Source of the DNA: Pyronema omphalodes
Taxonomy: Eukaryota; Ascomycota; Pezizomycetes; Pezizales; Pyronemataceae
DNA length: 64,000 nucleotides
Assembly: GCA_024516155.1 (NCBI GenBank)
Contig: JAJJXM010000057.1
Location: 372,001-436,000 of the forward strand
Direction of reading: 5' to 3'
Shown here in pieces: positions 27,442-61,229 of this stretch. A program made the translations under genes and the position numbers. A model generated the notes under the pieces. It searched no databases. It saw only the letters and a program-made list of their open reading frames with translations, and was not told the origin of the DNA. Position 1 is the first letter of the stretch. Every line of letters starts with the position of its first letter.

Positions 27442-27669
27442 CTGCGGTAATGGGTGAACCTGCACTGGGCCTTTGGACACGGCAACGGCGACCCCCCCCC
27501 CTGCATTCTCAACAACGAGCACCGAAACCCCCGGTTTTCTCATCGGATTCGGATTCGCAGCACTCTGTTACGTTATTCTCTGAATTTTCAGGGAATTCTA
27601 CGTCGTTTTTGTTGACTTTTGTCGCAAAATCAGAGTTCTCACGAGTTTTGGCTTACCCCACCTCACGAA

Positions 27670-29124
27670 ATGTCGCCAAAACAACGACAGAACAACGCCC
27701 GACGATCGAAACGGTCCGAAAACGCGTACAATGTTCTAGCCGACCTTCCTCATGATGGATCTAATCCTACATTTGATGAAAGAGATGGAAAAGTTGATGA
27801 AGTTGATGGAAACCTCGCTGGAAAGCCCTTCCAGAGCGTGGTCTTGGCAGGATCACCAGTTCCTTCGGCTTCAACACACCAGCAGCAAGCGACACCTGAG
27901 CACAACCGATTCAGAGAATTTCGCCGCGATCTGGTTATTGCTATGCGAGACGCTATCGAGAAAGACGACAGCGATAGCAGCTTGAGCGCCCTGTTCTGTG
28001 AACATGAACCGCTTTTCACAGGAGCAAGCTTCCTGGGGATACAACAGATCCACCGGGACACACAGCGTCGCTTCAATACGCTCGATGACACCATATGCAA
28101 CAACAGCGATGAGATGCGCCACAGATTCGCCGTCATGATGACGAAATTCAACATTCTGACCGGCGAAAACACGAAGCTGCGCGCAGCATACAACTCTACA
28201 TCGAAAGAAACAGCAGCTCTCAAGGCTGCTGTGGACGCCCTGACGACGAAAATCGACGAACAGCACCAAGTCATTTCGGCGCCCCCCTCACCGAACCTCA
28301 CGGCCTCTTCCTCAGCGATGGAAGAGATGACTATGCAACTGTCCGTCGTCCAACATGACATTCAGGATGTCCTGGACGCTGTTCGCAACCCTCCTGGCAA
28401 GAGAAAGCGAAGGTGTAGCGACCAGAACACCGAACCCACCTCACCGACAAACAGAAGACCGGTGAACCACAAACCGAGAGCGGCATCACCGGTGCGAAGC
28501 CTGACGCACTCGAAACATGCGACTACCGCCGCCCAGGACAAGCTTGATGCCCTCAAGCCTATGTCCCCCCTACCTCTCCTCGCGATCACGTCGACCGAAG
28601 CGACGCCGGAACCTCACCCTGACAGTTCATCTGTTCAGGACACACCTCTACCCGACGCCCCAAGCACTGCCCCTGCTGAGACGAACGGATGGAAGACTGT
28701 GGAGGCGAAGGCTACACAGAGGAAGAGGCAGAAAGCGAAGGAGACGACACCTACGGCAGCGCCACCCAGCAAGACCCCTACAACAAAGAATGGTGGCCGG
28801 GGAAAGAATACCCACCAACCCGGAACGACAACCTCCTCTGCAAAGAAGACTTGGGCAGAAGTCGTCAAGAGCGGAGGCATCAACGTCCAGATTGTGCTTG
28901 GGAATCGCAATCTTGGACTAACAACACCACCGACAAGAAGGGGAGAGAGGCGAGGGGGAGCAGCAAGAAGGCTGAGGAAGAAGGAAGGAGAAGGGGAGAG
29001 AGGGGAGGAGAAGAGGGGCAGGGCGGGCCCGGGTGTCTCAAAGGGCAGAGAGTCAGGAGACACCGGCGGAGGAGGTGAGAGCGGAGAGGAGAGTGGGGGC
29101 GCAGGTGGCCCGGCGGCTGTTTAA
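27670..29124 (+). CDS. Y1 ORF1-like protein, 484 aa (coiled coil, basic, TWAEVVK motif)
   Basis: ATG at 27670-27672 (MSPKQRQNNARRSKR). Order: basic N-terminus (1-20); a segment nearly constant among copies (20-75); a variable cassette (about 78-116); GASFLGIQQIHRDTQRR; heptad-rich coiled coil (about 128-200); a short helix (215-239); a basic patch GKRKR near 244, possibly nuclear localisation; a Pro/Thr/Ser-rich linker; TWAEVVKSGG near 394, resembling a motif of LINE ORF1 proteins; and a Gly/Glu/Arg-rich tail. There are no zinc knuckle, RT or endonuclease motifs. Frames of the same 484-codon length recur in Y5, Y8 and, once its insertion is discounted, Y7. The role is probably RNA binding and particle assembly, by analogy with LINE ORF1 proteins. 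Confidence 0.75.
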   Translation: MSPKQRQNNARRSKRSENAYNVLADLPHDGSNPTFDERDGKVDEVDGNLAGKPFQSVVLAGSPVPSASTHQQQATPEHNRFREFRRDLVIAMRDAIEKDDSDSSLSALFCEHEPLFTGASFLGIQQIHRDTQRRFNTLDDTICNNSDEMRHRFAVMMTKFNILTGENTKLRAAYNSTSKETAALKAAVDALTTKIDEQHQVISAPPSPNLTASSSAMEEMTMQLSVVQHDIQDVLDAVRNPPGKRKRRCSDQNTEPTSPTNRRPVNHKPRAASPVRSLTHSKHATTAAQDKLDALKPMSPLPLLAITSTEATPEPHPDSSSVQDTPLPDAPSTAPAETNGWKTVEAKATQRKRQKAKETTPTAAPPSKTPTTKNGGRGKNTHQPGTTTSSAKKTWAEVVKSGGINVQIVLGNRNLGLTTPPTRRGERRGGAARRLRKKEGEGERGEEKRGRAGPGVSKGRESGDTGGGGESGEESGGAGGPAAV

Positions 29125-29409
29125 CTTTGCTTTGGTTTTGTTTTTGCTTTGTGGAGGAAATAAAGGAGGGAAAATGGTTAAAAATGGGAGGGGAAGGGAG
29201 GAGGAAAGGGATGAGCCCAGCGAGGCGGCCTCTGTGCAAGCAGGGCACTTGGTACATCAGACGCGCTTGGACAAGAAACCCCCGTAGTAACAGTGGGGAC
29301 AGACCCCACAACCACAACGATCAAGAGGAGGAGACTGGTAGAGGTGGAGACTGGGTTTTTGCTTTTACATTTCTTTCTTCTTCTCTTTTGTATTTATCTG
29401 TCCCTTGTC

Positions 29410-30960
29410 CCTGTTCAGTAAATACCGTCGTCAAATAGTATCTGCAGTTAATGAGGCAGCCTCGCATAATGACAACTATGCCACCCTTGACCAACTGTTT
29501 GCAGACAACTGGACCGAGTTCATAGGAGCCAGCTACCTGGGGGTACACCAGACCTATCAGGACACACAGCGACGCTTCAATACACTCGAGGAATCCATAC
29601 GCAACAACAACGATGCGATACACGGCAGATTCGACGTCATGATGACGAAATTTAACGATCTGCTCTTCGAAAACGCGACGCTGCGCGAAGCATACGTCTC
29701 TACACAGGCAGAAACAGCAGCCCGCAGGGCTGCTGTGGACGCCCTGACGAAGAAAATCGACGAACAGCAACAAGTCATTTCGGCGCCCCCCTCACCGAAC
29801 CTCACGGCCTCTTCCTCCGCGATGGAAGAGATGACTATGCAACTGTCCGTTGTCCAACATGACATTCAGGATGTCCTGGACGCTGTTCGCAACCCTCCTG
29901 GCAAGAGAAAGCGAAGGGGAAGCGACCAGAACACCGAACCCACATCACCAACGACCAGAGTACCGGTCAACCACAAACCGAGAGCTGCATCACCGGTGCG
30001 AAGCCCGATGCACTCAAAACATGCGACTACCGCCGCCCAGGACAAGCTGGATGCCCTCAAGCTTAAGTCCCCCCTACCTCTCCTCGCAATCACACCGACC
30101 GAAGTGACATCGGAACCTCACCCTGACAGTTCATCTGCTCAGGACACACGTCTACCCGACGCCCCAAGCACTGCACCTGCTGAGACGAACGGATGGAAGA
30201 CTGTGGAGGCGAAGGCTACACAGAGGAAGAAGCAGAGAGCGCAGGAGATGAGACCGACGGCAGCGACACCCAGCAAGACCCCTACAACAGAGAATGGTGG
30301 CCGGGGAAAGAATACCCACCAACCCAGAACGACAACCCCCTCTGCAAAGAAGACTTGGGCAGAAGTCGTCAAGAGCGGAGGCATCAACGTCCAGATTGTG
30401 CTGGGGAATGGCAATCTTGGACTGACAACACCACCGACAAGAAGGGGAGAAAGGCGAGGGGGAGCAGCGAGAAGGCTGAGGAAGAAGGAAGGAGAAGGGG
30501 AGAGAGGGGAGGAGAAGAGGGGCAGGGCGGGCCCGGGTGTCTCAAAGGGGAAAGAGTCAGGAGACACCGGCGGAGGAGGGGAGAGAGGAGAGGAGAGCGG
30601 GGGCACTGGTGGCCCGGCGGCTGTTTAACTTTGCTTTGGTTTTGTTTTTGCTTTGTGGAGGAAATAAAGGGGGAAAAATGGTTAAAAATGGGAGGGGAAG
30701 GGTGGAGGAAATGGGGGAACGACCCGGCGAGGTGGCCTCCGAGCGTACAGGGCTGCTTGAACAGACGACGCTTGACGAACAAAAGCACAACGAGACTTGG
30801 GGGTCTACAACCCCACACCCTGACGACAAGCTCTGGGGCATACCCAGTGAGAGCCTGGCCTGACACCCGGGTTTCTTAATTTTGTATTTACTGTAGATTC
30901 CGCCATAACCTTACGGTTGGATGCGTGTATGAGTTAATAAATAAATAAATAAATAAATAA
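29410..30960 (+). mobile_element. Y2, 5'-truncated Y element with a-type 3' end, nested in Y1
   Basis: Bounded by a 10-bp duplication gtcccttgtc (29400-29409 and 30961-30970). It begins inside the ORF (about codon 80), runs to the ORF stop at 30628, then has the a-type 3' UTR, stem-loop and (TAAA)n tail ending at 30960. 5' truncation with a 3' tail is the hallmark of target-primed reverse transcription. Confidence 0.9.
29412..30628 (+). pseudogene. Y2 partial ORF, N-terminus missing
   Basis: About 405 codons remain open, starting in the variable cassette (KYRRQIVSAVNEAASHNDNYATLDQLF), then GASYLGVHQTYQDTQRR, coiled coil, basic patch, linker, TWAEVVKSGG and the Gly/Glu/Arg tail. The cassette differs from Y1 although downstream parts are nearly identical. 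Confidence 0.8.
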
Positions 30961-31016
30961 GTCCCTTGTCATAACCTTCGGGTTGCAAACAAGTAATGAG
31001 AGAACAAACAAACAAA

Positions 31017-31374
31017 CTGCGGTAATGGGTGTTTCGGAGGCGTTTGTACTCTGCATGGTGGGACGGGAGGCGAGTTGATTTCCACCTCTTTCTTGCGCTC
31101 TGCATATTCCGGCGTGTCGTGCGTACTTCCTCCGTCCACCACCTCTTCGAGCGGGGAGTTGGTGTGAGGGTGGGTGTCGCCTTTTGGGCAGCCGTTTGAA
31201 TGGAGTCCTGAAGGAGGGCGGCCCATTCGTCCAGGTTACTCGCAGAAGGGTTTGCGCGGAGGTATGTTCAGTATGGGTGACTGGCCTCGGCGAGGGTCTG
31301 TAGCTCCCTGGAAAAGGTGTCCCAGTCCGTTTTTTGCCAGTTGAGTCGCTGGGTGGTTGGGGTAGTGGTGGTAT
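31017..31374 (-). pseudogene. LINE X2 ORF2, linker between endonuclease and RT
   Basis: This piece lies between Y1 and gypsy D and corresponds to 51240-51550 of X3. MQSARKRWKSTRLPSHHAEYKRLRNTHYR and the upstream RSKRWWTEEVR are readable on the minus strand. A TGA replaces a tryptophan codon near 31267. Confidence 0.75.
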
Positions 31375-33517: not shown

Positions 33518-36286
33518 ACCAGCTGCAAGAAGATGGCTCTGCCGCTGGTGGGAATCTTATTGCTGATACATTGCTATTACCGGGCGCAAGTTTTACTGGA
33601 AAGTTAGAATGCAAACACCTTGTTCTCTCTTGTTCCTTGTTTTCCAATAACCGCTCCGTGAAAACAGTAGCGCTCATTGACTGCGGCGCCACTGGTATCG
33701 CCTTTGTTGACCGCAATTTCGCCCGCCATTACAAACTCTCCCTAACCCCCCTATCCACCGCCCGAACGGTCGAAGTTATCGACGGCCGCCTCATATCCTC
33801 AGGAAAAATCACACACCTCGCCCAAGTAGAGTGTACCATCAATGGTCACTCGGAAAACCTTCCCATGTTTGTCACCAAGTTGGGTCACTACCCGGTCGTG
33901 TTGGGCATCCCCTGGTTGAAAAAACACGATGTAACAATAAGCTTCAGTTCCAACACTGTAAGCTTCGACTCCCAATACTGCCTAAGGAACTGCACCCCGC
34001 TGCCTGTAAGCACAACCGGTGTCGAGGTCCTGGACCCGGGCCCCCCTCCCGCTGTCCACGAGCCCGACACAAACCCCATGCCGGAGTTAGAAGACTCGGT
34101 CCCCGACCCTCCGGACGAACCCCCAATAGCGATCTCAAGTCTAACCATCTCCGACTTCAAAGAAATGGTAGAAGACGAAAGCCTGACAGTGTTCTCGCTA
34201 TCGTTGGACGAGATCACCGTCGCCCTACAAGACAAGCCCCCCCTCACGGATGACGAACTGAAAGACATGATCCCTGAAGAGTATCATGACTACCTCGATT
34301 TATTCAAGGAGGTCAACGCGAAGGAACTCCCCCCACACCGACCCGACGACCACAAGATCCCACTGAAAGAGGGATTCGTCCCCCCCTTTGGCCTGCTATA
34401 CTCGCTGTCACGCAACGAGTTGCAGACGCTGAAAACGTGGCTCGATGAGAATTTGGGCAAAGGATTTATACAATGCTCCCAATCACCAGCCGCCTCGCCG
34501 ATATTATTCGTGAAAAAAGCAGACGGATCCCTACGCCTGTGTGTCGACTACCGGAGACTGAATGAAGGTACCGAGAAGAACCGGTACCCGCTGCCATTGA
34601 TACAGGAAACGATGATGAATCTTTCCAAAGCTCAATACTTTACGACGCTTGATGTCCGCAGCGCTTATAACCTTATCAGAATGGCAGAGGGCGAAGAATG
34701 GAAGACGGCCTTCCGCACAAGGTACGGCCTATTTGAGTCGAAAGTGATGCCCTTTGGGCTCACCAACGCGCCTGCCGATTTCCAGGCATTTATAAATGAT
34801 GTCCTGAGACCATACCTGGACCAGTTTTGTACGGCATACTTGAACGATATCCTCGTATTCTCCGAAACAAAGCCCGATCACACCGCACACGTCCGAAAGA
34901 TCTTGGAACGACTCAAACAAGAAAAACTGCACTTGAAGCCAGAGAAGTGTAAGTTTGCTAAGGCAGAAGTACAGTACCTGGGCTACAACATCGGCCGCGA
35001 CGGCGCGCGCATGATGGATTCTAAAGTAGCCACAGTGAGAGATTGGAAGGAACCAACCAATTTGAAACAGGTCCAAGAGTTCCTGGGTTTCGCGAATTTT
35101 TACCGCAGATTTATCAAAGACTACTCAAAAGTGGTCTCCCCTCTGACGGCTCTGACAAAAAAGAAAGATGGTAAAGCAATCCCCTTTACCTGGGGTAACG
35201 ACCAGCAAAGCGCCTTCGACCGACTGAAGGATGCATTTACATCAGCACCGATTCTCAAGCACTTCGACTACGAGAAACCGATTGTAGTAGAAACAGACAC
35301 ATCTGACTATGTGTCTGCTGGAGTCTTATCACAATACGACGACGATAACGTGTTACACCCCATCGCATTTTATTGCAAAAAGCATTCCCCGGCAGAATGC
35401 AACTACGAAATCTATGACAAAGAACTACTGGCAATAGTTCGTTGTTTCGAGGAATGGCGTCCCCACTTGGAGGGCTCCGCCTTCCCTATAAAAGTATTGA
35501 CAGACCACAAGAATCTCGAATACTTTATGACGACAAAGCTGCTAAACAGACGACAAGCACGCTGGTCCGAATTCCTGTCTCGGTTCAACTTTGTGATCAC
35601 CTATCGACCGGGAACGTTGGGAGGAAAACCGGACGCCCTGAAAAGACGAGCCGCCGACCTCCCGGAAGAGGGAGATGAACGCATACTAGCGAACCAGCAA
35701 GCTGTACTGAAGCCGCAAAACTTCCAGTTGTGCATGACCCCGCCCATGAAACTTGCACCCTCCGAAGTGGACCTCCTGTTTACAGAGGGCTACAAGACAG
35801 ATTCATTCCCCAACCGAGTGTTGGGAATGCTGGAAGACGGTACACAAATCTGTAAGGACATATCACTCGCCGATTGCTCCGTGTTGGAAAACAGATTGTA
35901 CTACTGAGACTGCCTCTATGTCCCCGCGCTGGATAAACTACGATTGAAACTACTACAAGATCACCACGACCCCTCACCATGGGACACCCGGGCCGTGCAA
36001 AGACTTTCGAACTGCTCGCCAGGAATTATTACTGGCCCTCGATGAGGAAAAATGTGGACCAATTCGTCCGAAATTGCCAAAACTCACACACCACACGGCA
36101 ACGGCGACCCCACCCCCCTGCATTCTCAACAACGAGCACCGAAACCCCCGGTTTTCTCATCGGATTCGGATTCGCAGCACTCTGTTACGTTATTCTCTGA
36201 ATTTTCAGGGAATTCTACGTCGTTTTTGTTGACTTTTGTCGCAAAATCAGAGTTTTCACGAGTTTTGGCTTACCCCACCTCACGAA

Positions 36287-37741
36287 ATGTCGCCAAAACA
36301 ACGACAGAACAACGCCCGACGATCGAAACGGTCCGAAAACGCGTACAATGTTCTAGCCGACCTTCCTCATGATGGATCTAATCCTACATTTGATGAAAGA
36401 GATGGAAAAGTTGATGAAGTTGATGGAAACCTCGCTGGAAAGCCCTTCCAGAGCGTGGTCTTGGCAGGATCACCAGTTCCTTCGGCTTCAACACACCAGC
36501 AGCAAGCGACACCTGAGCACAACCGATTCAGAGAATTTCGCCGCGATCTGGTTATTGCTATGCGAGACGCTATCGAAAAAGACGACAGCGATAGCAGCTT
36601 GAGCGCCCTGTTCTGTGAACATGAACCTCTTTTCACAGGAGCAAGCTTCCTGGGGATACAACAGATCCACCGGGACACACAGCGTCGCTTCAATACGCTC
36701 GATGACACCATACACAACAACAGCGATGAGATGCGCCACAGATTCGACGTCATGATGACGAAATTCAACATTCTGACCGGCGAAAACACGAAGCTGCGCG
36801 CAGCATAGAACTCTACACAGAAAGAAACAGCAGCTCTCAAGGCTGCTGTGGACGCCCTGACGACGAAAATCGACGAACAGCACCAAGTCATTTCGGCGCC
36901 CCCCTCACCGAACCTCATGGCCTCTTCCTCAGGGATGGAAGAGATGACAATGCAACTGTCCGTCGTCCAACATGACATTCAGGATGTCCTGGACGCTGTT
37001 CGCAACCCTCCTGGCAAGAGAAAGCGAAGGGGTAGCGACCAGAACACCGAACCCACCTCACCGACAAACAGAAGACCGGTGAACCACAAACCGAGAGTGG
37101 CATCACCGGTGCGAAGCCTGATGCACTCGAAACATGCGACTACCGCCGCCCAGGACAAGCTTGATGCCCTCAAGCCTATGTCCCCCCTACCTCTCCTCGC
37201 GATCACGTCGACCGAAGCGACGCCGGAACCTCACCCTGACAGTTCATCTGTTCAGGACACACCTCTACCCGACGCCCCAAGCACTGCCCCTGCTGAGACG
37301 AACGGATGGAAGACTGTGGAGGCGAAGGCTACACAGAGGAAGAAGCAGAAAGCGAAGGAGACGACACCTACGGCAGCGCCACCCAGCAAGACCCCTACAA
37401 CAAAGAATGGTGGCCGGGGAAAGAATACCCACCAACCCAGAACGACAACCTCCTCTGCAAAGAAGACTTGGGCAGAAGTCGTCAAGAGCGGAGGCATCAA
37501 CGTCCAGATTGTGCTTGGGAATGGCAATCTTGGACTAACAACACCACCGACAAGAAGGGGAGAGAGGCAAGGGGGAGCAGCAAGAAGGCTGAGGAAGAAG
37601 GAGGGAGAAGGGGAGAGAGGGGAGGAGAAGAGGGGCAGGGGGGGCCCGGGTGTTTCAAAGGGCAAAGAGTCAGGAGACACCGGCGGAGGAGTTGAGAGAG
37701 GGGAGGAGAGTGGGGGCGTAGGTGGCCCGGCGGCTGTTTAA
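36287..37741 (+). pseudogene. Y9 ORF1-like protein, one nonsense codon
   Basis: A 484-codon frame, nearly identical to Y1 including its variable cassette (NRFREFRRDLVIAMRDAIEKD), but with a TAG at 36806-36808 where other copies have tyrosine (RAAY). The C-terminal half reads on to 37741 with the basic patch, TWAEVVKSGG and the low-complexity tail. Confidence 0.85.
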
Positions 37742-38072
37742 CTTTGCTTTGGTTTTGTTTTTGCTTTGTGGGGGAAATGAAGGCGGAAAAATGGTTAAAA
37801 ATGGGAGGGGAAGGGTGGAGGAAATGGGGGAACGACCCGGCGAGGTGGCCTCCGAGCGTACAGGGCTCCTGGAACAGACGACGCTTGACGAACAAAAGCA
37901 CAACAAGATTTGGGGGTCCACAACCCCACACCCTAACGACAAGCTCTGGGGCATACCCAGTGAGAGCTTGGCCTGACACCCGGGTTTCTTAATTTTGTAT
38001 TTACTGTAGATTCCGCCATAACCTTACGGTTGGATGCGTGTATGAGTTAATAAATAAATAAATAAATAAATA

Positions 38073-38350
38073 GGGAGGGGAAGGGAGGAGGAAAGGGAGG
38101 AGCCCGGCGAGGCGGCCTCTGTGCAAGCAGGGCACTTGGAACATCAGACGCGCTTGGACAAGAAACCCCCGTAGTAACAGTGGGGACAGACCCCACAACC
38201 ACAACGATCAAGAGGAGGAGACTGGTAGAGGTGGAGACTGGGTTTTTGCTTTTACATTTCTTTCTTCTTCTCTTTTGTATTTATCTGTCCCTTGTCATAA
38301 CCTTCGGGTTGCAAACAAGTAATGAGAGAACAAACAAACAAACAAACAAA
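38073..38350 (+). repeat. b-type 3' end attached to Y9
   Basis: Starts in the purine-rich region (GGGAGGGGAAGGGAGG) and matches the 3' end of Y1 and Y8. The stem-loop AACC-TTCG-GGTT is at 38299-38310 and the (AACA)n tail at 38327-38350. Confidence 0.88.
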
Positions 38351-39523
38351 CGTCCGAAATTGCCACACTTGTAAAAGAACAAAAGGTACCCGCCACGCAC
38401 CCTATGGAACCTTGAAACCCCTACCGGTCCCGCACCACCCTTGGCAGAATATATCTGTGGACTTTGTTACTGGCCTACCGACATCAGAAGCCTTCGACGC
38501 AATATGTGCGATCGTTTGCCGACTCACGAAACAGCGGCACTTAGTGCCCTGTCACTCCACGATAGACGCAGAAGGCTTCGCGCAACTCTTCCTGGAAAAC
38601 GTATTCAAACTACACGGCCTGCCAGACACAGTAGTGTCCGACCGCGGCCCGCAATTTGTGGCCCACTTCTGGAAACACCTGTCAAATTGCATGGGTATCG
38701 AAATTGCCACGAGCACGGCCTTCCATCCCCAAACCGACGGCCAAACAGAAAGAATCAACGCGGTTACGGAGCAATATCTCCGCGCGTACGTCTGTTATTT
38801 ACAGGACGATTGGAAGAAATTTTTACCACTGGCAGAATTTGCTGCAAATAACCAAGTATCGGATACAACGTCGCTGTCTCCGTTCTACGCTATATACGGC
38901 CGACACCCCAAATGCTCTTTGAATTGGAAATCAGGACAGACAATCCTGAAGAAGTGAAAGCGAACAAGGTAGCGGAAAGGATGTCACACATCCATGACGT
39001 CTTATGTTCGGAAATGAAATACGCCCAAGCCCGCCACATAGAAGCCGCCGGCAATTCCCGACTCCCCGCGCCGGTCTTCAAACCAGGAGACCTAGTATGG
39101 CTGGACGCCCGCAACCTCAGAACCCGCCGCCCCTCAAAGAAACTGGAAAACAAACACCTAGGCCCCTTCACCGTGTTACGGCCCATTGGATCCCACGCCT
39201 ATGAATTGGATATACCAGAGACAATGAAACATCACAGGACCTTCCCCGTGTCCCTACTAAACCAAGCCCCTTCGGACCCCCTCCCTGGCCAGATTATCCC
39301 ACCGCCCCTACCGGTAGTAGTAGACGGCGAAGAAGAATGGTTCGTGGATGAAATTCTGGATAGCCGTTGGTCAAGAGCAAACCTGCAGTACCTCGTCAAG
39401 TGGACTGGCCATGACTCTCCAACCTGGGAACCGGAAACGAACCTATCCGAAACTGAGGCCGCTGAGAAATTCCATCAGTTATACCCAGACAAACCTTCTC
39501 CTCTCGTAGGAACTCGAGCCTAA

Positions 39524-44950: not shown

Positions 44951-45002
44951 GCTCTTTGCTGGGTGGCGCGGGGGAGGGTGTATGCTTGTTTGGAGCAGAT
45001 GA

Positions 45003-45017: not shown

Positions 45018-45521
45018 CACGGCAACGGCGACCCCCCCTGCATTCTCAACAACGAGCACCGAAACCCCCGGTTTTCTCATCGGATTCGGATTCGCAGCAC
45101 TCTGTTACGTTATTCTCTGAATTTTCAGGGAATTCTACGTTATTTTGTTGACTTTTGTCGCAAAATCAGAGTTTTCACGAGTTTTGGCTTACCCCACCTC
45201 ACGAAATGTGGCCAAAACAAAGATAGAACAACGCCCAACGATCGAAACGGTCCGAAAACGCGTAAAATGTTCTGGCCGACCTTCCTCATGATGGATCTAA
45301 TCCTACTTTTGATGGAAGAGATGGAATAGTTGATGAAGTTGATGGAAACAGCGCTGGAGAACCCCTCCAGAACGTGGTCTTGGCAGGATCACCTGTTCCT
45401 TCGGCTTCAACAGATCAGCAACAAGACACAACTACCTGATCGCTGTATATGTGGCGCCACGAAATAATCAAGTTCATCCTTGAAGAATATGGAGCAGGTG
45501 ATGAAGCGCACCTGGACAGAT

Positions 45522-46308
45522 TTATTTATTTATTTATTTATTAACTCATACACGCATCCAACCGTAAGGTTATGGCGGAATCTACAGTAAATACAAAATT
45601 AAGAAACCCGGGTGTTAGGCCAGGCTCTCACTGGGTATGCCCCAGAGCTTGTCGTTAGGGTGTGGGGTTGTAGACCCCCAAGTCTCGTTGTGCTTTTGTT
45701 CGTCAAGCGTCGTCTGTTCCAGGAGCCCTGTACGCTCGGAGGCCACCTCGCCGGGTCGTTCCCCCATTTCCTCCACCCTTCCCCCTCCCTTTCTTAACCG
45801 TTTTTCCGCCTTTATTTCCTCCACAAAGCAAAAACAAACAAGCAAAAGAAAAGAAAAGAAGATATAACTCCCCCGGGTCAACGCCCCCCCATCGCACCTC
45901 TCTCCCCTGTGCCACTACCCTACTCTACGTCCCTCCCCTCGCCCTTCACCACGCTCCTCCCTCTCGGCTCGCCAGCCGTCCAGCGTCCCACTCCGTCCAC
46001 TTCTCTCCGCGTCACCATCTCGCACTCGCCTCATTCGTGCTCCTCCCGTCCGTCTCCACCGCGTCTCTCCTCTCCCTCGACTCCTCGCCTCACTTTCATT
46101 CCCGTTTCAAAAAGAAAAAACACAATACTCCATTCTCCACAACAACCACGCTTCCGCTCTCCCAGTCTCCCGTCTCCACTCTCTCCTCGTCATCGTCCGC
46201 TTCCTCCATCTCCCCTCTCCCTCGCCTCTCTCTCCGCTCTCGCCTCCCGCTTCTCCCTCCCTCCGTCCTCCTCCTACTTCTTTTTATTATTATTTTTTTT
46301 TTTTTTTT
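45522..46308 (-). other. 3' UTR and tail of LINE X3
   Basis: The first roughly 315 bp (45522-45838) are nearly identical to the Y a-type 3' end: tail, stem-loop, CACCCGGGTTTC block, GAGGTGGCCTCC block. Beyond that the sequence is LINE-specific, C/T-rich on the plus strand, with a T run (46288-46310) next to the ORF2 stop. No gene. Confidence 0.85.
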
Positions 46309-52299: not shown

Positions 52300-55200
52300 C
52301 AGTGGTCATGGTGGTGTCGGCGATGGGGTTTATTTCGGCGGGGATGGCGTCTAGGGGTGTTGTCTCCGGGCGAGTCTTCTGCCAGGCTTCCCTGACGACG
52401 TTCACTTTGACGGGGCAGCGGGTGCTGTATGCGGCGTGGTGGACGTCTGTGTGGCCAGCGGCGACACAATTTGCACACTTGTAGAGGGTGTGTTGACATT
52501 TGCGGCCCTGGATTGTGGGACACTGGCCACATTGGTGATATTCGGTGGGGTGAGGGGCGGCGCATATCGCGCAAGCGGGGCCATTGTCAGCTGGGCAGAT
52601 TGCATGATGATGTCCAAATTTCTGGCATCTGCGGCATTGGTCAATGGAACGGGCGGTGAAGAATTCTGTCACCTTGCGTTGTTCGAATAATACTGTCACC
52701 TTTGTTCTCTTGAGGAGGTTGTATTCCTCGCTGGACTTCAGTGCGATCATCACACTGGAGGCGGTCTTACCAACACGCTTGTCCGGGTGAGAGATGTACC
52801 TTGGGGGTTGTGTCAGGCGTACTCTGTGGTTCGTCTCGATTTCTTGCTGCAATTTTCCCATACCCTGGGCTTTTATTTATTTATTTATTAACTCATACAC
52901 GCATCCAACCGTAAGGTTATGGCGGAATCTACAGTAAATACAAAATTAAGAAACCCGGGTGTTAGGCCGAGCTCTCACTGGGTATGCCCCAGAGCTTGTC
53001 GTTAGGGTGTGGGGTTGTAGACCCCCAAGTCTCGTTGTGCTTTTGTTCGTCAAGCGTCGTCTGTTCCAGGAGCCCTGTACGCTCGGAGGCCACCTCGCAG
53101 GGTCGTTCCCCCATTTCCTCCACCCTTCCCCTCCCATTTTTAACCATTTTTCCGCCTTTATTTCCCCCACAAAGCAAAAACAAAACCAAAGCAAAGTTAA
53201 ACAGCCGCCGGGCCACCTACGCCCCCACTCTCCTCCCCTCTCTCAACTCCTCCGCCGGTGTCTCCTGACTCTTTGCCCTTTGAAGCACCCGGGCCCGCCC
53301 TGCCCCTCTTCTCCTCCCCTCTCTCCCCTTCTCCCTCCTTCTTTCTCAGCCTTCTCGCTGCCCCGCCTCGCCTCTCTCCCCTTCTTGTCGGTGGTGTTGT
53401 AAGTCCAAGATTGCCATTCCCAAGCACAATCTGGACGTTGATGCCTCCGCTCTTGACGACTTCTGCCCAAGTCTTCTTTGCGGAGGGGGTTGTCTGTCTG
53501 GGTTGGTGGGTATTCTTTCCCCTGCCACCAGTCTTCGTTGTAGGGGTCTTGCTGGGTGTCGCTGCCGTAGGTCTCGTCTCCTGCGCTTTCATCTTCTTCT
53601 TCTGCGTAGCCTTCGCCTCCACAGTCTTCCATCCGTTCGTCTCAGCAGGGGCAGTGCTTGGGACGTCGGGTAGAGGTGTGTCCTGAGCAGATGAACTGTC
53701 AGGGTGAGGTTCCGGTGTCGCATCGGTTGACGTGATCGCGAGGAGAGGTAGGGGGACATAGGCTTGAGGGCATCAAGCTTGTCCTGGGCGGCGGTAGTCG
53801 CATGTTTCGAGTGCATCAGGCTTCGCACCGGTGATGCAGCTCTCGGTTTGTGGTTGACCGGTGCTCTGGTCGTTGGTGAGGTGGGTTCGGTGTTCTGGTC
53901 GCTTCCCCTTCGCTTTCTCTTGCCAGGAGGGTTGCGGACAGCGTCCAGGACATCCTGAATGTCATGTTGGACGACGGACAGTTGCATAGTCATCTCTTCC
54001 ATCGCTGAGGAAGAGGCCGTGAGGTTCGGTGAGGGGGGCGCCGAAATGACTTGTTGCTGTTCGTCGATTTTCTTCGTCAGGGCGTCCACAGCAGCCTTGA
54101 GAGCTGCTGTTTCTGCCTGTGAAGAGTCGTATGCTGTGCGCAGCGTCGCGTTTTCGAAGAGCAGATCGTTGAATTTCGTCATCATGACGTCGAATCTGCC
54201 GTGTATCGCATCGTTGTTGTTGCGCATGGATTCCTCGAGTGTATTGAAGCGTCGCTGTGTGTCCCGGTGGATCTGTTGTATCCCCAGGAAGCTGGCTCCA
54301 TTGAGTTCGGCGTAGTTGTCATGGAACAGCTGATCCAGGGTGGCATAGGTGTCATCAGCTGCAACTGCCTCATTAATCGCGGATACACACAAGCGGCGGT
54401 AGGTACTGAACCGGCTGTGTTCAGTTGTCGCTTGTAGCTGGTGTGTTGAAGCCGAAGGAACTGGTGATCCTGCCAAGACCACGCTCTGGAAGGGTTTTCC
54501 AGCGAAGTTTCCATCAACTTCATCAACTATTCCATCTCCTCCATCAAAAATAGGGTTGGGTCCATCATGAGGAGGGTCGGCTAGAACATTGTACGCGTTT
54601 TCGGACCGTTTCGATGGTCGGACGTTGTTCTGTCGTTGTTTTGGCGACATTTCGTGAGGTGGGGTAAGCCAAAACTCGTGAAAACTCTGATTTTGCGACA
54701 AAAGTCAACAAAAACAACGTAGAATTCCCTGAAAATTCAGAGAATAACGTAACAGAGTGCTGCGAATCCGAATCCGATGAGAAAACCGGGGGTTTCGGTG
54801 CTCGTTGTTGAGAATGCAGGGGGGGGGGTCGCCGTTGCCGTGTGGTGTGTGCGCGCATACCCTCGGCGGTGTCCTCGTAGTAATCCGTGGGGATTCCGTG
54901 GACTGCCAGCTTATACCATTTTTCGTTAAGTCGGGGGGGCAAGAGGTTCGGGTGGACTGTGCAGGCAGCGGCGTGGATAACAGAGAGGTGGGGGGTGAGA
55001 TCGGTAATGGATGTGTTCGGGGAAGGGGTAAGCATGAGGCTTCCTGCGAGATTTTTCCTAACCGTCATGATGTTTCCTTCCACCTTCGCCTTGTGTAGGG
55101 CTTCGTTGACAGCTAATCCAATGGCGACCTTAGAGCTATCGGGCAGGGCACGGGGGTCAGGGCAGGGGATCACAATGTCTTGGACGCGGGGGGGGTTCTT

Positions 55201-56199
55201 GCGTTGGGGGTTGGGTTTGGTGGTCTTAGGGGGGGTCTTCGATGGGGCAGCGGCTTTCTCTTTGAACAGCTTGACGGACGAGGGTATTGGTCCTTGCCAC
55301 GGTTCGTTCGCCTGGGGTGGGGGAGGGGGTAGGTGAGGGGGAGGAGGGAGCTCGTTCTTCCGGAGTTCAGCTTCGGCGTTCAAGCACCTCTGCTTCCAGT
55401 ACTCGGCTTCGCTGAGGCGGGGGGCATGTTTGGAGGGTAAATCGAGAGGGGCGTTAACGGGTTGGGTATCGGGGCTGGTGGTCTCGAGGGGGGTGGGGGA
55501 TGCGGAGACGGGGGTGGGGGGCACGGCGGTAGCTGTTCCTTTCGGTAGGAGGGACGGGGCGAGGAGTTGGACGGCATCGTAGATGGATTGGAGGAGGGAC
55601 TGGTTCTTGTTGATTGTCTTGCACGCTTTGTTGATTCTGTCGTTCGTTGTCTGGTCGGCGTGACGAAACATGTCCGCGGTGGTAGCAAGATTGTGGTGGA
55701 GGACGTCGATGGATTGAGCGAGGTCGGCGTTGCTGGGAGGTGTGGCGTTGATCGGAGCGATGTCAGGGTGGAGTCGTTTGACGTTTGCAGGAACGGGGGT
55801 GGAGTCTTCGGCGATATGGGTGATAGTATGGGCAGTGGAGGCGGCGGGGCGTTTTTTCTGTTTTCCGGTGGTTTGTTGGATGGAGTATTTGGGGTCATTG
55901 TTGCTCAGTTGATCGGGGGTGTCGGAGTTTACAGGGAGGGGTTTTTTGTTGTGGGGTGTTTTGGGTGGGGCGTTGGTGGTGTTGCGAGAAGTTGGCGTTG
56001 GGGAGCTGTCTCGGGGAGACGCGTCGTCGTCGCTGGAATCCTCGCTGACGTCAGAGCACGTGTCTACGTGCATCTCAACGTCGGACGCGTCGGACTCGTG
56101 CGGCTCTGCGTTAGCGCGTTTTTCTTTCGCGAGCGCTCGAGGGGGCGCTTTGTCGGGGGGGAGGGGCTGTTTCTCAACAGCGGAGGATCGGGTGGGCAT
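52292..56199 (-). CDS. LINE X3 ORF1, 636-codon zinc-knuckle protein (interrupted only by Y6)
   Basis: Starts MPTRSSAVEKQPLPP at 56199. It has an acidic serine-rich region, a basic segment, helices, a proline-rich linker, the conserved core (IVIPCPDPRALPDSS, NEKWYKLAVHGIPTD, VRLTQPPRYISHPDKRVGK), then Cys/His clusters CRRCQKFGHHHAIC, CAICAAPHPTEYHQC and CANCVAAGHTDVHHAAYSTRC. It ends TTMTTDE. Y6 splits the frame after EDTAEGM and the phase is kept. ORF1 proteins of this type bind LINE RNA. The stop overlaps the ORF2 ATG by 8 nt (52292-52299). Confidence 0.9.
52870..54855 (-). mobile_element. Y6, full-length Y element (a-type) in LINE X3 ORF1
   Basis: Duplication cataccct (52859-52866 and 54856-54863), extendable to 11 bp with one mismatch. 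1986 bp with the TTTA tail and stem-loop at the left and the C-run leader (GGCGACCCCCCCCC on the sense strand) at the right. Same orientation as the host LINE. Confidence 0.92.
53197..54650 (-). pseudogene. Y6 ORF1-like protein, 1-nt deletion
   Basis: Starts at 54650 with MSPKQRQNN. The cassette resembles Y5 (SRFSTYRRLCVSAINEAVAADD). One base is missing in a C run near 53751-53755 (MSP then wrong frame), where Y8 has six bases and Y6 five. Downstream the correct frame reads to 53197. Otherwise full length. Confidence 0.85.
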
Positions 56200-57552
56200 C
56201 GGAAGTTCGGAATAAGTTGTTTCTGCGGTAGCGACAAGGAATCCGCGATTGAAATGATGGTTGTTGATGTGGGTGGAGGGTGGTGTTGATGGAACCGGTT
56301 CGCGGGGCTTTTCTCAGGGGCCCGAAAACTCTTTTTCGATGAAAACTCAACGAAAAAGAGAGGGCCTGATCTGGAAATGCTGCGAATAGGTAATTCGGGG
56401 CTGCCGAACAATTATCCGCGACAAAATCTTGCGATTTAGGTAGGTATAATAAGAAAAGTATGGGGGATGCACCTGGACAGATCATTGGCAGCAAACCACT
56501 CACGCATCAGTGCCCTCACGTTGTTAGGTGTCAACCAGGACAACACAGAGACTCACCGCCGCTTCGACACAGTCGAAGAGAAGATGTACGACATAAGCTA
56601 CCACATCGACCACAGGCTTGATGCCGTTCTGGCGAAACTCAACGACCTGCACGGCGAAAAGGCGAAGCTGCGCGCAGCATACGACTCTACACAGGCAGAA
56701 ACAGCAGCTCTCAAGGCTGCTGTGGACGACCTGACGATGAAAATCGCCGAACAGCAACAAGTCATTTCGGCGCCCCCCTCACCGAACCTTACGGCCTCTT
56801 CCTCAGCGATGGAAGAGATGACTATGCAACTGTCCGTCGTCCAACATGACATTCAGGATGTCCTTGACGCTGTTCGCAACCCTCCTGGCAAGAGAAAGCG
56901 AAGGGGAAGCGGCCAGAACACCGAACCCACCTCACCGACAAACCGAAGACTGGTGAACCACAAACCAAGAGCGACATCACCGGTGCGAAGCCTGATGCAC
57001 TCGAAACATGCGACTACCGCAGCCCAGGAGAAGCTGGATGCCCTCAAGCTTACGTCCCCCCTACCTCCCCTCGCAATCACATCGACCGAAGCGACACCGG
57101 AACCTCACACTGACAGTTCATCTGCTCAGGACACACCTCTACCCGACGCCCCAAGCACTGCCCCTGCTGAGATCAACGGATGGAAAACTGTGGAGGCGAA
57201 GGCTACACAGAAGAAGATGACAGCGATTTATTTATTTATTTAATAACTCATACACGCATCCAACCGTAAGGTTATGGCGGAATCTACAGTAGATACAAAA
57301 TTAAGAAAGCCGGGTGTCAGGCCGAGCTCTCACTGGGTATGCCCCAGAGCTTGTCGTTAGGGTGTGGGGTTGTAGACCCCCAAGTCTCGTTGTGCTTTTG
57401 TTCGTCAAGCGTCGTCTGTTCCAGGAGCCCTGTACGCTCGGAGGCCACCTCGCCGGGTCGTTCCCCCCATTTCCTCCACCCTTCCCCTCCCATTTTTAAC
57501 CATTTTTCCGCCTTTATTTCCTCCACAAAGCAAAAACAAAACCAAAGCAAAG

Positions 57553-60500
57553 TTAAACAGCCGCCGGGCCACCTACGCCCCCACTCTCCTCTCCTCTCTC
57601 AACTCCTGCGCTGGTGTCTCCTGACTCTTTGCCCTTTGAGACACCCGGGCCCGCCCTGCCCCTCTTCTCCTCCCCTCTCTCCCCTTCGCCTTCCTTCTTC
57701 CTCAGCCTTCTCGCTGCTCCCCCTCGCCTCTCTCCCCTTCTTGTCCGTGGTGTTGTCAATCCAAGATTGCCATTCCCCAGCACAATCTGGACGTTGATGC
57801 CTCCGCTCTTGACGACTTCTGCCCAAGTCTTCTTTGCAGAGGGGGTTGTCGTTCTGGGTTGGTGGGTGTTCTTTCCCCTTCCACCATTCTTTGTTGTAGG
57901 GGTCTGTTTGGGTATCGCTGCCGTAGATGTCGTCTCCTTCGCTTTCATCGTCTTCTTCTGTGTGGCCTTTGCCTCCACAGTCTTCCATCCATCGGTCTCA
58001 GCAGGGGCAGTGCTTGGGGCGTCGGGTAGAGGTGTGTCCTGAGCAGATGGACTGTCAGGGTGAGGTTCCGGTGTCGCTTCGGTCGACGTGATCGCGAGGA
58101 GAGGTAGGGGGGAGACAGGCTTGAGGGCATCAAGCTTGTCCTGGGCAGCGGTAGTCGCATGTTTTGAGTGCATCAGGCTTCGCACCGGTGATGCAGCTCT
58201 CGGTTTGTGGTTGACCGGTGTTCTGGTCGTTGGTGAGGTGGTTTGTTTGTTTGTTTGTTCTCTCATTACTTGTTTGCAACCCGAAGGTTATGACAAGGGA
58301 CAGATAAATACAAAAGAGAAGAAGAAAGAAATGTAAAAGCAAAAACCCAGTCTCCACCTCTACCAGTCTCCTCCTCTTGATCGTTGTGGTTGTGGGGTCT
58401 GTCCCCACTGTATACTACGGGGGTTTCTTGTCCAAGCGCGTCTGATGTTCCAAGTGCCCTGCTTGCACAGAGGCCGCCTCGCCGGGCTCCTCCCTTTCCT
58501 CCTCCCTTCCCCTCCCATTTTTAACCATTTTTCCTCCTTAATTTCCTCCACAAAGCAAAAACAAAACCAAAGCAAAGTTAAACAGCCGCCGGGCCACCCG
58601 CGCCCCCACTCTCCTCTCCTCTCTCCCCTCCTCCGCCGGTGTCTCCTGACTCTTTGCCCTTTGAGACACCCGGGCCCGCCCTGCCCCTCTTCTCCGCTCC
58701 TCTCTCCCCTTCTCCTTCCTTCTTCCTCAGCCTTCTCGCTGCTCCCCCTCGCCTCTCTCCCCTTCTTGTCGGTGGTGTTGTCAGTCCAAGATTGCCATTC
58801 CCCAGCACAATCTGGACGTTGATGCCGCCGCTCTTGACGACTTCTGCCCAAGTCTTCTCTGCAGAGGGGGTTGTCGTTCTGGGTTGGTGGGTATTCTTTC
58901 CCCTTCCACCATTCTTCGTTGTAGGGGTCTGTTTGGGTATCGCTGCCGTAGATGTCGTCTCCTTCGCTTTCATCTTCTTCTTCTGTGTGGCCTTTGCCTC
59001 CACAGTCTTCCATCCGTCGGTCTCAGCAGGGGCAGTGCTTGGGGCGTCGGGTAGAGGTGTGTCCTGAGCAGATGGACTGTCAGGGTGAGGTTCCGGTGTC
59101 GCATCGGTTGACGTGATCGCGAGGAGAGGTAGGGGGGACATAGGCTTGAGGGCATCAAGCTTGTCCTGGGCGGCGGTAGTCGCATGTTTTGAGTGCATCA
59201 GGCTTCGCACCGGTGATGCCGCTCTCGGTTTGTGGTTCACCGGTCTTCTGTTTGTCGGTGAGGTGGGTTCGGTGTTCTGGTCGCTTCCCCTTCGCTTTCT
59301 CTTGCCAGGAGGGTTGCGAACAGCGTCCAGGACATCCTGAATGTCATGTTGGACGACGGACAGTTGCATAGTCATCTCTTCCATCGCTGAGGAAGAGGCC
59401 GTGAGGTTCGGTGAGGGGGGCGCCGAAATGACTTGTTGCTGTTCGTCGATTTTCCTCGTCAGGGCATCCACAGCAGCCTTGAGAGCTGCTGTTTCTGCCT
59501 GTGTAGAGTCGTAGGCTGCGCGTAGCTTCGTGTTTTCGCCGATCAGAATGTTGAATTTCGTCATCATGACGTCGAATCTGAGGCGCATCTCATCGCTGTT
59601 GTTGCGTATGGTGTCATCGAGGGTATTGAAACGACGCTGTGTGTCCTGGTGGATCTGTTGTATCCCCAGGAAGCTGGCTCCAGCGACTTCGGGGTAGCTG
59701 TTATAAAACAGTAGGTCAAGGGAGGCATAATTGTCATCAACCAGGGCTGCCTGATTAATGGCAGATACAATATTGCGACGGTAGGTACTGAACCGGCTTT
59801 GTTCAGTTGTCGCTTGTTGCTGGTGTGTTGAAGCCGAAGGAACTGGTGATCCTGCCAAGACCACGCTCTGGAAGGGTTTTCCAGCGAAGTTTCCATCAAC
59901 TTCATCAACTTTTCCATCTCTCCCATCAAGAGTAGGATTAGATCCATCATGAGGAAGGTCGGCTAGAACATTGTACGCGTTTTCGGACCGTTTCGATCGT
60001 CGGGCGTTGTTCTGTCGTTGTTTTGGCGACATTTCGTGAGGTGGGGTAAGCCAAAACTCGTGAAAACTCTGATTTTGCGACAAAAGTCAACAAAAACAAC
60101 GTAGAATTCCCTGAAAATTCAGAGAATAACGTGACAGAGTGCTGCGAATCCGAATCCGATGAGAAAACCGGGGGTTTCGGTGCTCGTTGTTGAGAATGCA
60201 GGGGGGGGGTCGCCGTTGCCGTGTGGTGTGACCCTGTTGGTGAGGTGGGTTCGGTGTTCTGGTCGCTTCCCCTTTGCTTTCTCTTGCCAGGAGGGTTGCG
60301 AACAGCGTCCAGGACATCCTGAATGTCATGTTGGACGACGGACAGTTGCATAGTCATCTCTTCCATCGCTGAGGAAGAGGCCGTGAGGTTCGGTGAGGGG
60401 GGCGCCGAAATGACTTGGTGCTGTTCGTCGATTTTCTTCGTCAGGGCGTCCACAGCAGCCTTGAGAGCTGCTGTTTCTGCCTGCATAGAGTCGTATGCTG

Positions 60501-61014
60501 CGCGCAGCTTCGTGTTTTCGCCGAGCAGAATGTCGAAGTTCGTCATCATGACGTCGAATCTGTGGCGCATCTCATCGCTGTTGTTGCGTATGGTGTCATC
60601 GAGGGTATTGAAGCGTCGCTGTGTATCCCGGTGGATCTGTTGTATCCCCAGGAAGTTGGCTCCAATGAGTTCGGCGTAGTTGTCTCTAAACAGTTGATCT
60701 AGAGTGACATAGTTGTCATCAACTGCAACTGCCTCATTGATCGCAGATACACACAAGCGACGGTAGTCGCTGAACCGGCTTTGTTCAGTCGTCGCCTGTT
60801 GCTGCTTTGTTGAAGCCGAAGGAACTGGTGATCCTGCCAAGACCACGCTCTGGAAGGGCTTTCCAGCGAAGTTTCCATCAACTTCATCAACTATTCCATC
60901 TCCTCCATCAAAAGTAGGATTGGATCCATCATGAGGAGGGTCGGCTAGAACATTGTACGCGTTTTCGGACCGTTTCGATCGTCGGGCGTTGTTCTGTCGT
61001 TGTTTTGGCGACAT
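57553..61014 (-). CDS. Y7 ORF1-like protein, frame kept apart from Y8 insertion
   Basis: The start is 61014. Lengths on both sides of Y8 (61014-60236 and 58228-57553) add to 1455 nt, the same 484 codons plus stop as Y1, Y5 and Y8. Cassette: SRFSDYRRLCVSAINEAVAVDDNYVTLDQLFRDN. The reading frame is broken only by Y8, which lies in the linker after EPTSPT. Confidence 0.75.
58242..60235 (-). mobile_element. Y8, full-length Y element (b-type) in Y7
   Basis: 13-bp duplication gttggtgaggtgg (58229-58241 and 60236-60248). 1994 bp. The (AACA)n tail appears as TTTG repeats at 58242-58258, followed by the TTCG stem-loop and the b-type 3' UTR. The 5' leader with the C run is at 60190-60235. Confidence 0.94.
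58578..60032 (-). CDS. Y8 ORF1-like protein, 484 aa, intact
   Basis: Starts at 60032 (MSPKQRQNNARRSKRS), ends at 58578, with no stop or indel. The cassette differs again (SRFSTYRRNIVSAINQAALVDDN, LFYNSYPEVAGAS), whereas the coiled coil resembles Y1 (LDDTIRNNSDEMRLRF). The downstream region with GKRKRRG, TWAEVVKSGG and the low-complexity tail matches the a-type copies, although this element has the b-type 3' end. Confidence 0.77.
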   Translation of the reverse strand: MSPKQRQNNARRSKRSENAYNVLADLPHDGSNPTLDGRDGKVDEVDGNFAGKPFQSVVLAGSPVPSASTHQQQATTEQSRFSTYRRNIVSAINQAALVDDNYASLDLLFYNSYPEVAGASFLGIQQIHQDTQRRFNTLDDTIRNNSDEMRLRFDVMMTKFNILIGENTKLRAAYDSTQAETAALKAAVDALTRKIDEQQQVISAPPSPNLTASSSAMEEMTMQLSVVQHDIQDVLDAVRNPPGKRKRRGSDQNTEPTSPTNRRPVNHKPRAASPVRSLMHSKHATTAAQDKLDALKPMSPLPLLAITSTDATPEPHPDSPSAQDTPLPDAPSTAPAETDGWKTVEAKATQKKKMKAKETTSTAAIPKQTPTTKNGGRGKNTHQPRTTTPSAEKTWAEVVKSGGINVQIVLGNGNLGLTTPPTRRGERRGGAARRLRKKEGEGERGAEKRGRAGPGVSKGKESGDTGGGGERGEESGGAGGPAAV

Positions 61015-61229
61015 TTCGTGAGGTGGGGTAAGCCAAAACTCGTGAAAACTCTGATTTTGCGACAAAAGTCAACAAAAACAACGTAGAATTCCCTGAAAAC
61101 TCAGAGAATAACGTAACAGAGTGCTGCGAATCCGAACCGATGAGAAAACCGGGGGTTTCGGTGCTCGTTGTTGAGAATGCAGGGGGGGGGTCGCCGTTGC
61201 CGTGTGGTGTTACAAGATGAAAGCGAAGG

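What the first reader, a model, noticed from the sequence alone, without database searches (positions are those of the whole stretch)
27457..61213. Family Y: a full-length ORF1-only 'half-LINE' that shares its 3' end with an autonomous LINE
Nine Y copies are visible. Those with both ends defined by duplications are consistently about 1.97-2.0 kb (Y3 1965, Y5 1974, Y6 1986, Y8 1994), so this is a defined unit and not random truncation. Each carries one 484-codon ORF (open in Y1, Y5 and Y8, and in Y7 apart from the Y8 insertion) and no RT, endonuclease or zinc knuckle. Duplications of 8-15 bp, tails and a 5'-truncated copy (Y2) show target-primed mobility. The last roughly 315 bp of a-type copies are nearly identical to the 3' end of LINE X3 (compare 42986-43300 with 45522-45838). 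Inference: Y RNA is mobilised in trans by X. The closest known analogue is mammalian HAL1, which keeps ORF1 only; a fungal counterpart with a coding ORF under apparent constraint would be notable.
Basis: partly seen in the sequence, partly recalled or inferred. Interest (0 to 1): 0.88.

Follow-up and report, generated by a model that had tools for sequence, protein, structure and literature searches.

The report
Gene-carrying LINE parasite that swaps helpers
In a soil fungus, a 2-kilobase jumping element that makes one conserved protein but no copying enzyme appears to borrow that enzyme from several different full-length elements by wearing their tail sequences, a partner-switching trick known from tiny non-coding elements.

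Summary
Family Y is a discrete ~2.0-kb element in a genome that is almost certainly Pyronema omphalodes. Two capped searches list 165 distinct Y ORFs, most without stops. The ORF is under purifying selection (median dN/dS 0.36 between subfamilies, 1.30 in shifted frames). Only 2 of the 165 have a listed RT within 3 kb downstream, and both are complete Y copies nested in LINEs.

Two parts of the interpretation change. (1) Y is not tied to LINE X. Among 53 distinct Y 3' ends, the distal part matches LINE W in 23, X in 20, Z in 8 and X74/X78-type LINEs in 2, while the first 45 bp after the stop are closest to x2/X78-type LINEs in 53 of 53. Tail type and ORF ancestry disagree, so Y has repeatedly exchanged its 3' end. 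In the window, Y3 is a full Y joined to 284 bp of W tail inside one 14-bp target duplication: a probable template-jump chimera. (2) The ORF shows no convincing homology to LINE ORF1 (hhalign probability 5%), although Y's 5' UTR is LINE-like.

Best reading: a protein-coding, RT-less, helper-switching LINE parasite. Closest in kind: HAL1, HeT-A, MoTeR2, CORE-SINEs. Trans-mobilisation itself is inferred.

The parts
27457..31017 (+). Y1: full-length alpha-type Y with a W-type 3' end, interrupted by Y2 at 29410-30961. Flanking repeat TGCGGTAATGGGTG.
27670..29124 (+). Y1 ORF, 484 codons plus stop
29125..29409 (+). Y1 W-type 3' end (continues 30972-31017 beyond Y2)
   Evidence: 93-97% to W LINE and to a W-tailed Y
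29410..30961 (+). Y2: 5'-truncated Y with an X-type 3' end, inserted in Y1's tail; 10-bp duplication GTCCCTTGTC
36080..38067 (+). Y3: full-length Y with a complete X-type 3' end; 5' part of a chimeric insertion
38068..38351 (+). 284 bp of W LINE 3' end joined directly to the (AATA)n end of Y3, inside the same insertion
   Evidence: 98-99% to W; unique junction in the genome
36066..36079 (+). 5' copy of the 14-bp target duplication GTCCGAAATTGCCA enclosing Y3 plus W tail
38352..38365 (+). 3' copy of the 14-bp target duplication; the unfilled site is in the other LTR-element copy (minus strand, at 16736)
   Evidence: 74 of 80 bases identical to the empty site
42986..44955 (-). Beta-subfamily Y with an X-type 3' end, inserted at the 5' end of LINE x2; 14-bp duplication ACCCAGCAAAGAGC. 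Its open frame is 43314-44618.
45017..45433 (+).
47833..49807 (+). Intact alpha-type Y with an X-type 3' end, inserted in ORF2 of LINE X3; 15-bp duplication AGAGCCAAAATCCGA. ORF 47970-49478 (stop to stop).
52872..54841 (-). Y with an X-type 3' end and a disrupted ORF, inserted in ORF1 of LINE X3
56452..57217 (+). Partial Y interrupted by the copy at 57226-61205 (start approximate)
57226..61205 (-). Y with an X-type 3' end, interrupted by the W-tailed Y at 58245-60235
58245..60235 (-). Intact alpha-type Y with a W-type 3' end; 13-bp duplication CCACCTCACCAAC. ORF 58578-60086 (stop to stop).
45522..56440 (-). Autonomous LINE X3 (zinc-knuckle ORF1; endonuclease, RT and RNase H ORF2) carrying two nested Y copies; source type of the X tail
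61237..64000 (+). 5' half of an autonomous Z/W-type LINE that runs on beyond the window (to contig position 439014)

Best explanation
Y is a non-autonomous non-LTR retrotransposon with its own conserved protein and no polymerase or endonuclease. It has a LINE-like 5' UTR, one 484-codon ORF (a long helix flanked by disordered, partly basic regions) and a 3' UTR whose distal ~200 bp is taken from an autonomous LINE. Shown here: the anatomy, insertion marks, constraint on the ORF, four 3'-end types matching four LINE types, ORF ancestry and tail type that disagree, and one chimeric insertion in which a Y copy is joined to another LINE's tail. Inferred: the RT of the LINE whose 3' end Y wears (X, W, Z or X74/X78-type) primes on the shared terminal hairpin and repeat. 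The Y protein coats its own RNA, which is why selection keeps it in an element that cannot move alone. During reverse transcription the enzyme sometimes switches between a LINE RNA and a Y RNA within a conserved stretch just after the Y stop codon, giving Y a new 3' end and so a new helper.
Against: No transcript, protein or retrotransposition data. The genome-wide tail searches were capped at about 40 hits: 7 of 40 W-tail hits lie downstream of a listed W RT, but 0 of 40 X-tail and 0 of 40 Z-tail hits lie downstream of a listed RT, so the X and Z links rest on 5 X and 4 Z LINE copies read directly (4 more Z candidates and 2 other LINEs had no recognisable end). Fold energies of the terminal hairpin are no better or only modestly better than shuffles (z -0.49 to -1.89), and the compensatory changes are few. 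Ten of 23 copies lack a repeat of 8 bp or more. DNA-level gene conversion could also make mosaic tails. Loci were chosen by similarity to Y1, X RT or an X tail, so the tail proportions are not genome frequencies.
Confidence: 0.78

Rival explanations
1. True half-LINE by descent: the Y ORF is the ORF1 of an X78/x2-like LINE that lost ORF2 and has since diverged beyond recognition, as HAL1 arose from L1.
For: Y's 5' UTR resembles the 5' UTR of LINE X over ~160 bp (local score 61 against a maximum of 27 in 500 shuffles; W 44 against 26). The proximal 3' UTR is LINE-like. The ORF sits where ORF1 would and is predicted to have one long helix.
Against: hhalign of the Y profile (25 sequences) against the LINE ORF1 profile (6 sequences, Z not included) gives probability 5%, E 0.0076, over 36 low-complexity columns. 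No zinc knuckle.
Confidence: 0.3
2. The mosaic tails come from DNA-level recombination or gene conversion between inserted copies, not from template switching. Mobilisation by several LINEs would still follow.
For: Copies are numerous, similar and often nested, which favours ectopic exchange. The alpha-beta synonymous distance falls from 1.35 (residues 219-268) to 0.12 (residues 417-466), as a conversion tract would give.
Against: The Y3 + W-tail chimera lies in a single 14-bp target duplication with an intact empty site elsewhere, which conversion does not explain.
Confidence: 0.25
3. One LINE with relaxed 3'-end recognition mobilises every Y, and the tail types are historical passengers.
For: All tail types share an AACC/GGTT hairpin and A-rich repeats.
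Against: Tails match their LINE counterparts at 97-99% (X, 19 of 20), 98-100% (W, 19 of 23) and 97-99% (Z, 7 of 8), so each is recent. Terminal repeats differ as the LINEs' do: AATA for X, AAAC for W and Z.
Confidence: 0.15
4. Y is a deletion remnant of a larger autonomous LINE that has Y as its ORF1 and is missing from, or collapsed in, the assembly.
For: The assembly has 232 contigs, and RT hits were listed only up to a cap (54 of 1351 and 82 of 1029 candidates scored).
Against: Of 70 tail rows, 59 reach a complete LINE-type terminus. The two ORFs with an RT downstream are nested insertions. The three LINE families read in full carry a different ORF1 or its zinc-knuckle part.
Confidence: 0.07
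5. Y is a host gene dispersed as retrocopies by LINEs.
For: The ORF has no similarity to known retrotransposon proteins.
Against: Uniform ~2-kb units with LINE-type ends on both sides, intact ORFs in most listed copies, and mobility of several subfamilies are unlike processed pseudogenes. No single-copy progenitor was looked for beyond the capped searches.
Confidence: 0.04

Closest known systems
HAL1 (half-L1), mammals
   Same: RT-less, encodes one protein, flanked by target duplications, thought to depend on a full-length LINE (PMC5322556 and PMC5753468, passages).
   Different: HAL1 encodes L1 ORF1p; the Y ORF has no convincing homology to LINE ORF1. Y wears the 3' ends of at least four LINE types.
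MoTeR2, Magnaporthe oryzae
   Same: Fungal, RT-less, with terminal sequences shared with an RT-encoding LINE (860 bp at 5', 77 bp at 3') and an unrelated middle (PMC7367193, passages).
   Different: MoTeR2 is telomeric and paired with one LINE; its 786-bp unique part has 'no obvious function' in that paper. Y is dispersed, carries a 484-codon ORF under constraint, and pairs with several LINEs.
HeT-A, Drosophila
   Same: A LINE-like element that encodes no RT, has a Gag under negative selection, and is presumed to use another element's RT (PMC5537684, passages).
   Different: HeT-A is confined to telomeres and its Gag is an ORF1p-type protein; no exchange of 3' ends between helpers is described in the passages seen.
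CORE-SINEs and other SINE/LINE pairs
   Same: One element lineage carried by several LINEs through different LINE-derived 3' ends: MIR with L2, MIR3/Ther-2 with L3, Mar-1 with RTE-3 (PMC3747384 table, passage).
   Different: SINEs are short and non-coding. Y carries a conserved protein gene, and its changes of partner are recent and within one genome.
MINE chimeras, Magnaporthe grisea
   Same: LINE-tailed chimeras made by RNA template switching during LINE reverse transcription in a fungus, flanked by target duplications (PMC2104539, abstract, passages and section 9).
   Different: MINE 5' parts are the non-coding WEIRD RNA, and the paper regards WEIRD as no transposable element. Y is a propagating coding family; only Y3 is a MINE-like junction.

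Membership tests
Half-LINE (HAL1-type) | ORF homologous to ORF1 of the parent LINE | tested here: not met
   hhalign probability 5%, 36 columns; Z ORF1 not in the profile
Half-LINE (HAL1-type) | No RT or endonuclease in the element | tested here: met
   (RT lists capped)
Half-LINE (HAL1-type) | UTRs derived from a LINE | tested here: met
   5' UTR against X and W; 3' UTR
Half-LINE (HAL1-type) | Target-primed insertion with target duplications and a 3' tail | tested here: met
   13 of 23 with 8 bp or more, 10 of 506 in controls; repeat tails
Half-LINE (HAL1-type) | Mobilised in trans by a LINE RT | not testable with these tools
   Needs a retrotransposition assay
MoTeR2-like RT-less LINE relative | Both termini shared with an RT-encoding element, middle unrelated | tested here: met
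   3' end 92-98% to partner; 5' end only distantly alike, about 70%
MoTeR2-like RT-less LINE relative | Telomeric insertion | tested here: not met
   Copies lie inside LINEs, an LTR element and other Y copies within contigs; no telomere repeat was sought
SINE | Short, pol III promoter, non-coding | tested here: not met
   About 2 kb with a constrained 484-codon ORF; a pol III promoter was not looked for
SINE/LINE pair with exchangeable tail (CORE-SINE-type behaviour) | One body with 3' ends of different LINEs | tested here: met
Tad-type autonomous LINE (clade name recalled) | Endonuclease-RT-RNase H ORF2 in the element | tested here: not met
   Present in X, absent from Y

The most novel reading that the evidence does not exclude
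On this view the Y protein is the cause of cis-preference in an element that owns no enzyme, which would separate the packaging function of a LINE from its catalytic function.
Probability: 0.4. Interest if true: 0.82.

Novelty: new variant of a known kind. Interest (0 to 1): 0.66.

Why it matters
What keeps a protein gene intact in a retroelement that cannot copy itself is an old puzzle for HAL1 and HeT-A. Y offers many near-intact, recent copies and a built-in set of natural experiments: near-identical ORFs with different docking ends, and diverged ORFs with the same docking end. That makes it possible to test separately what the 3' end does (helper choice) and what the protein does (cis-preference, packaging). 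It also extends the tail-exchange strategy of SINEs to a coding element, and shows LINE template switching at work within a single insertion.

Tried and rejected
Homology of the Y ORF to known proteins: no Pfam match above cut-off for the Y1 ORF; only weak coiled-coil-type matches over 25 family members (best E 3.8e-4); nothing in the PDB below E 0.25. AlphaFold gave mean pLDDT 50.9 and pTM 0.30, with one confident long helix (residues 130-218 of the 501-residue construct) and the rest disordered; I did not run a fold search on it. A heptad-periodicity test gave no clear coiled-coil signal.

A scan of viral contigs with the Y profile found nothing.

The coordinate test of tails against listed ORFs and RTs was only partly informative: X-tail 20 of 40 after Y and 0 after RT; W-tail 10 after Y, 7 after W RT; Z-tail 12 after Y and 0 after RT; the rest unassigned. 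The RT-adjacency control found 2 downstream, 11 upstream and 11 opposite-strand pairs within 3 kb.

L006 looked like a possible Y-Y template jump but proved to be an ordinary nested beta-Y with a 13-bp duplication. A reciprocal junction (W tail followed by an X-type tail) was not found. L043 (X-type end followed closely by a W-type end) was not resolved, because its 5' flank is not held.

Rows dropped: of 70 tail rows, 11 were left out of the tail classification (one LINE end, one cut by a locus edge, nine interrupted or unresolved); 6 of the remaining 59 repeat a copy already counted, leaving 53. Of those 6, L047 lies at another contig position than L048 but is identical to it including flanks. 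From the ORF tree 2 of 37 sequences were dropped, and four interrupted tails were assigned by hand from their remaining sequence (Y1 and L006 as W, L017 and L018 as Z). ORFs for dN/dS were kept only if open for 470 codons, or 440 at a locus edge (37 kept after removing identical ones).
Full report
Where it is. The window is contig C186, 372001-436000, of a 60.8-Mb genome in 232 contigs. Named protein hits to the Y ORF are all Pyronema omphalodes (BZA77DRAFT_ tags), and seven of the contig lengths given with them equal contig lengths of this genome (131020, 959751, 45383, 139280, 95315, 104804, 330407). I take the host to be that fire-associated discomycete (description recalled).

What Y is. 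Nine Y copies and one 5' fragment lie at 27457-61205, many nested in each other, in LINEs or in an LTR element. Three have an open 502-codon frame, 484 from the ATG. Two genome searches, capped at 88 and 102 scored hits, give 165 distinct Y ORFs by 3' end; 78 of 88 and 95 of 102 hits have no stop inside. By ORF there are at least three subfamilies, here called alpha (502 stop-to-stop codons), beta (498; the copy at 42986-44955) and '500'. Related proteins at 45-61% identity occur in JGI metagenomes (155 proteins at E <= 0.001, 120 listed, from 8,000 scored candidates).

Insertion marks. Of 70 rows with a Y-like ORF end, 23 had both element ends in held DNA. They measure 1.98-2.04 kb except one with a mis-anchored 5' end; the search range for the 5' end limited how far lengths could vary. 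Direct repeats of at least 8 bp flank 13 of 23, against 10 of 506 mismatched pairs; at least 10 bp, 10 of 23 against 3 of 506.

Constraint. On 37 intact ORFs, Nei-Gojobori dN/dS is 0.36 alpha-beta, 0.34 beta-500 and 0.60 alpha-500. The same alignments read in the other two frames give 1.30/1.30, 1.27/1.40 and 0.97/1.36. Within tail groups of alpha it is 0.44-0.52. Constraint is strongest in residues 180-310 and in the C-terminal third; residues about 99-148 cannot be aligned reliably between alpha and beta, and within alpha one window (139-188) has dN above dS (0.105 against 0.047). The protein has one long helix and otherwise predicted disorder, with basic stretches at 241-280 and 361-440. 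That fits an RNA-binding, self-associating protein, but function is not shown.

No RT. Of 165 Y ORFs, 2 have a listed LINE RT within 3 kb downstream on the same strand (11 upstream, 11 opposite). Both were fetched: each is a complete W-tailed Y inserted in a LINE, one in X ORF1 and one in W ORF2. RT lists were capped, so this is not exhaustive. Fifty-nine of 70 tail rows end in a recognisable LINE-type terminus.

The 3' ends. Other Y copies end differently. I read the 3' ends of 5 X, 4 W and 4 Z LINEs and of 6 single members of related families. In the distal 3' UTR, X-tailed Y is 96-98% identical to X, W-tailed Y 97% to W, and Z-tailed Y 92% to Z, while X is 60-61% identical to W or Z and W 74% to Z. 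Over 53 distinct Y copies the best distal match is W in 23, X in 20, Z in 8 and X74/X78 in 2. The first 45 bp after the stop codon are closest to x2/X78-type LINEs in 53 of 53 copies, and positions 45-75 in 50 of 53, ties included. Only the two X74/X78-tailed copies are of one type throughout, which suggests the ancestral state.

Repeated exchange. X-tailed alpha and beta ORFs are dS 0.645 apart but have 96% identical distal tails; X-tailed and W-tailed alpha ORFs are dS 0.147 apart but have 59% identical distal tails. On a tree of 35 ORFs the tail type changes at least 7 times; 3 is the minimum for four types, and shuffled labels need 16 on average, 11 at least. So tails are inherited for a while and then replaced. 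Breakpoints differ: L020 and L022 pass from W-like to Z-like inside the tail, and L019, L024 and L050 become W-like further upstream than other W-tailed copies. The fall of alpha-beta dS towards the ORF's 3' end, to the level seen within alpha (0.123 and 0.115), suggests that exchange also reaches into the coding region.

A chimera in the window. Y3 has a complete X-type end, (AATA)n, followed at once by 284 bp of W LINE 3' end. A 14-bp duplication flanks the whole (36066-36079, 38352-38365), there is no duplication at the inner junction, and the related LTR element at 15.5-21.4 kb holds the unfilled site (74 of 80 bases). The junction occurs once in the genome. The simplest account is one target-primed event that began on a W-type RNA end and jumped to the 3' end of a Y RNA. 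Template switching of this kind is described for the MGL LINE of Magnaporthe grisea (PMC2104539; abstract, passages and section 9).

A shared docking hairpin. All tail types end in a two-stem hairpin with an AACC/GGTT inner stem. Two outer pairs differ on both sides between the X-, W- and Z-type LINEs (CG against TA), and 56 of 59 Y rows could be parsed and follow the tail they wear. Fold energies are not remarkable (z -0.49 for X, -1.51 to -1.89 for the others).

Origin. Y's 5' UTR is related to that of LINE X (score 61; 500 shuffles reach 27 at most) and less so of W (44 against 26). The ORF is not recognisably LINE ORF1. Y is therefore a LINE-ended element whose gene is either a very diverged ORF1 or of other origin; this remains open.

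Comparison. RT-less, coding LINE dependants are known (HAL1, HeT-A), a fungal RT-less element sharing both ends with a LINE is known (MoTeR2), and SINE lineages that use different LINE tails are known (CORE-SINEs) (passages only). I found no report of a coding element that has exchanged 3' ends among several LINEs in one genome. The searches were made, in an open-access library that lacks most subscription papers; the original HAL1 paper was not held. I therefore rate it a new variant of a known kind.

Limits. Loci were chosen by similarity to Y1, to the X RT or to an X tail, so tail proportions are not genome frequencies. Mobilisation in trans, cis-preference and the role of the protein are inferences.

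Noticed in passing
window 61248-64000: This LINE's first ~0.8 kb is 95% identical to LINE W, but from 62466 it is only 70% like W and from 62866 is 96% like Z, so the autonomous LINEs may be mosaics too.
   Followed up: no
Y ORF residues about 99-188 (alignment A1): A hypervariable stretch at the start of the long helix differs almost completely between Y subfamilies and metagenome homologues, while the flanks are conserved; within alpha dN exceeds dS in one window.
   Followed up: partly
L012 3440-3757: A short W-type 3' end without Y or LINE body follows a W-tailed Y, with what looks like a repeat of nearby sequence on its two sides: possibly a severely 5'-truncated insertion.
   Followed up: no
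G000:C189 1157-1170 kb (L046-L048): Three X-tailed Y copies lie about 5.5 kb apart with near-identical surroundings, which suggests tandem or segmental duplication of a stretch that also holds Z-type RT fragments.
   Followed up: no
window 15487-21400 and 31415-39596: Two related LTR retrotransposons (about 96% alike), the second interrupted by the Y3 chimera. Used only as an empty-site reference.
   Followed up: no
G000: LINE X is present in many near-identical copies with open ORF2 (42 of 54 scored RT hits without stops, about 98% identical), so the genome probably holds recently active LINEs.
   Followed up: partly
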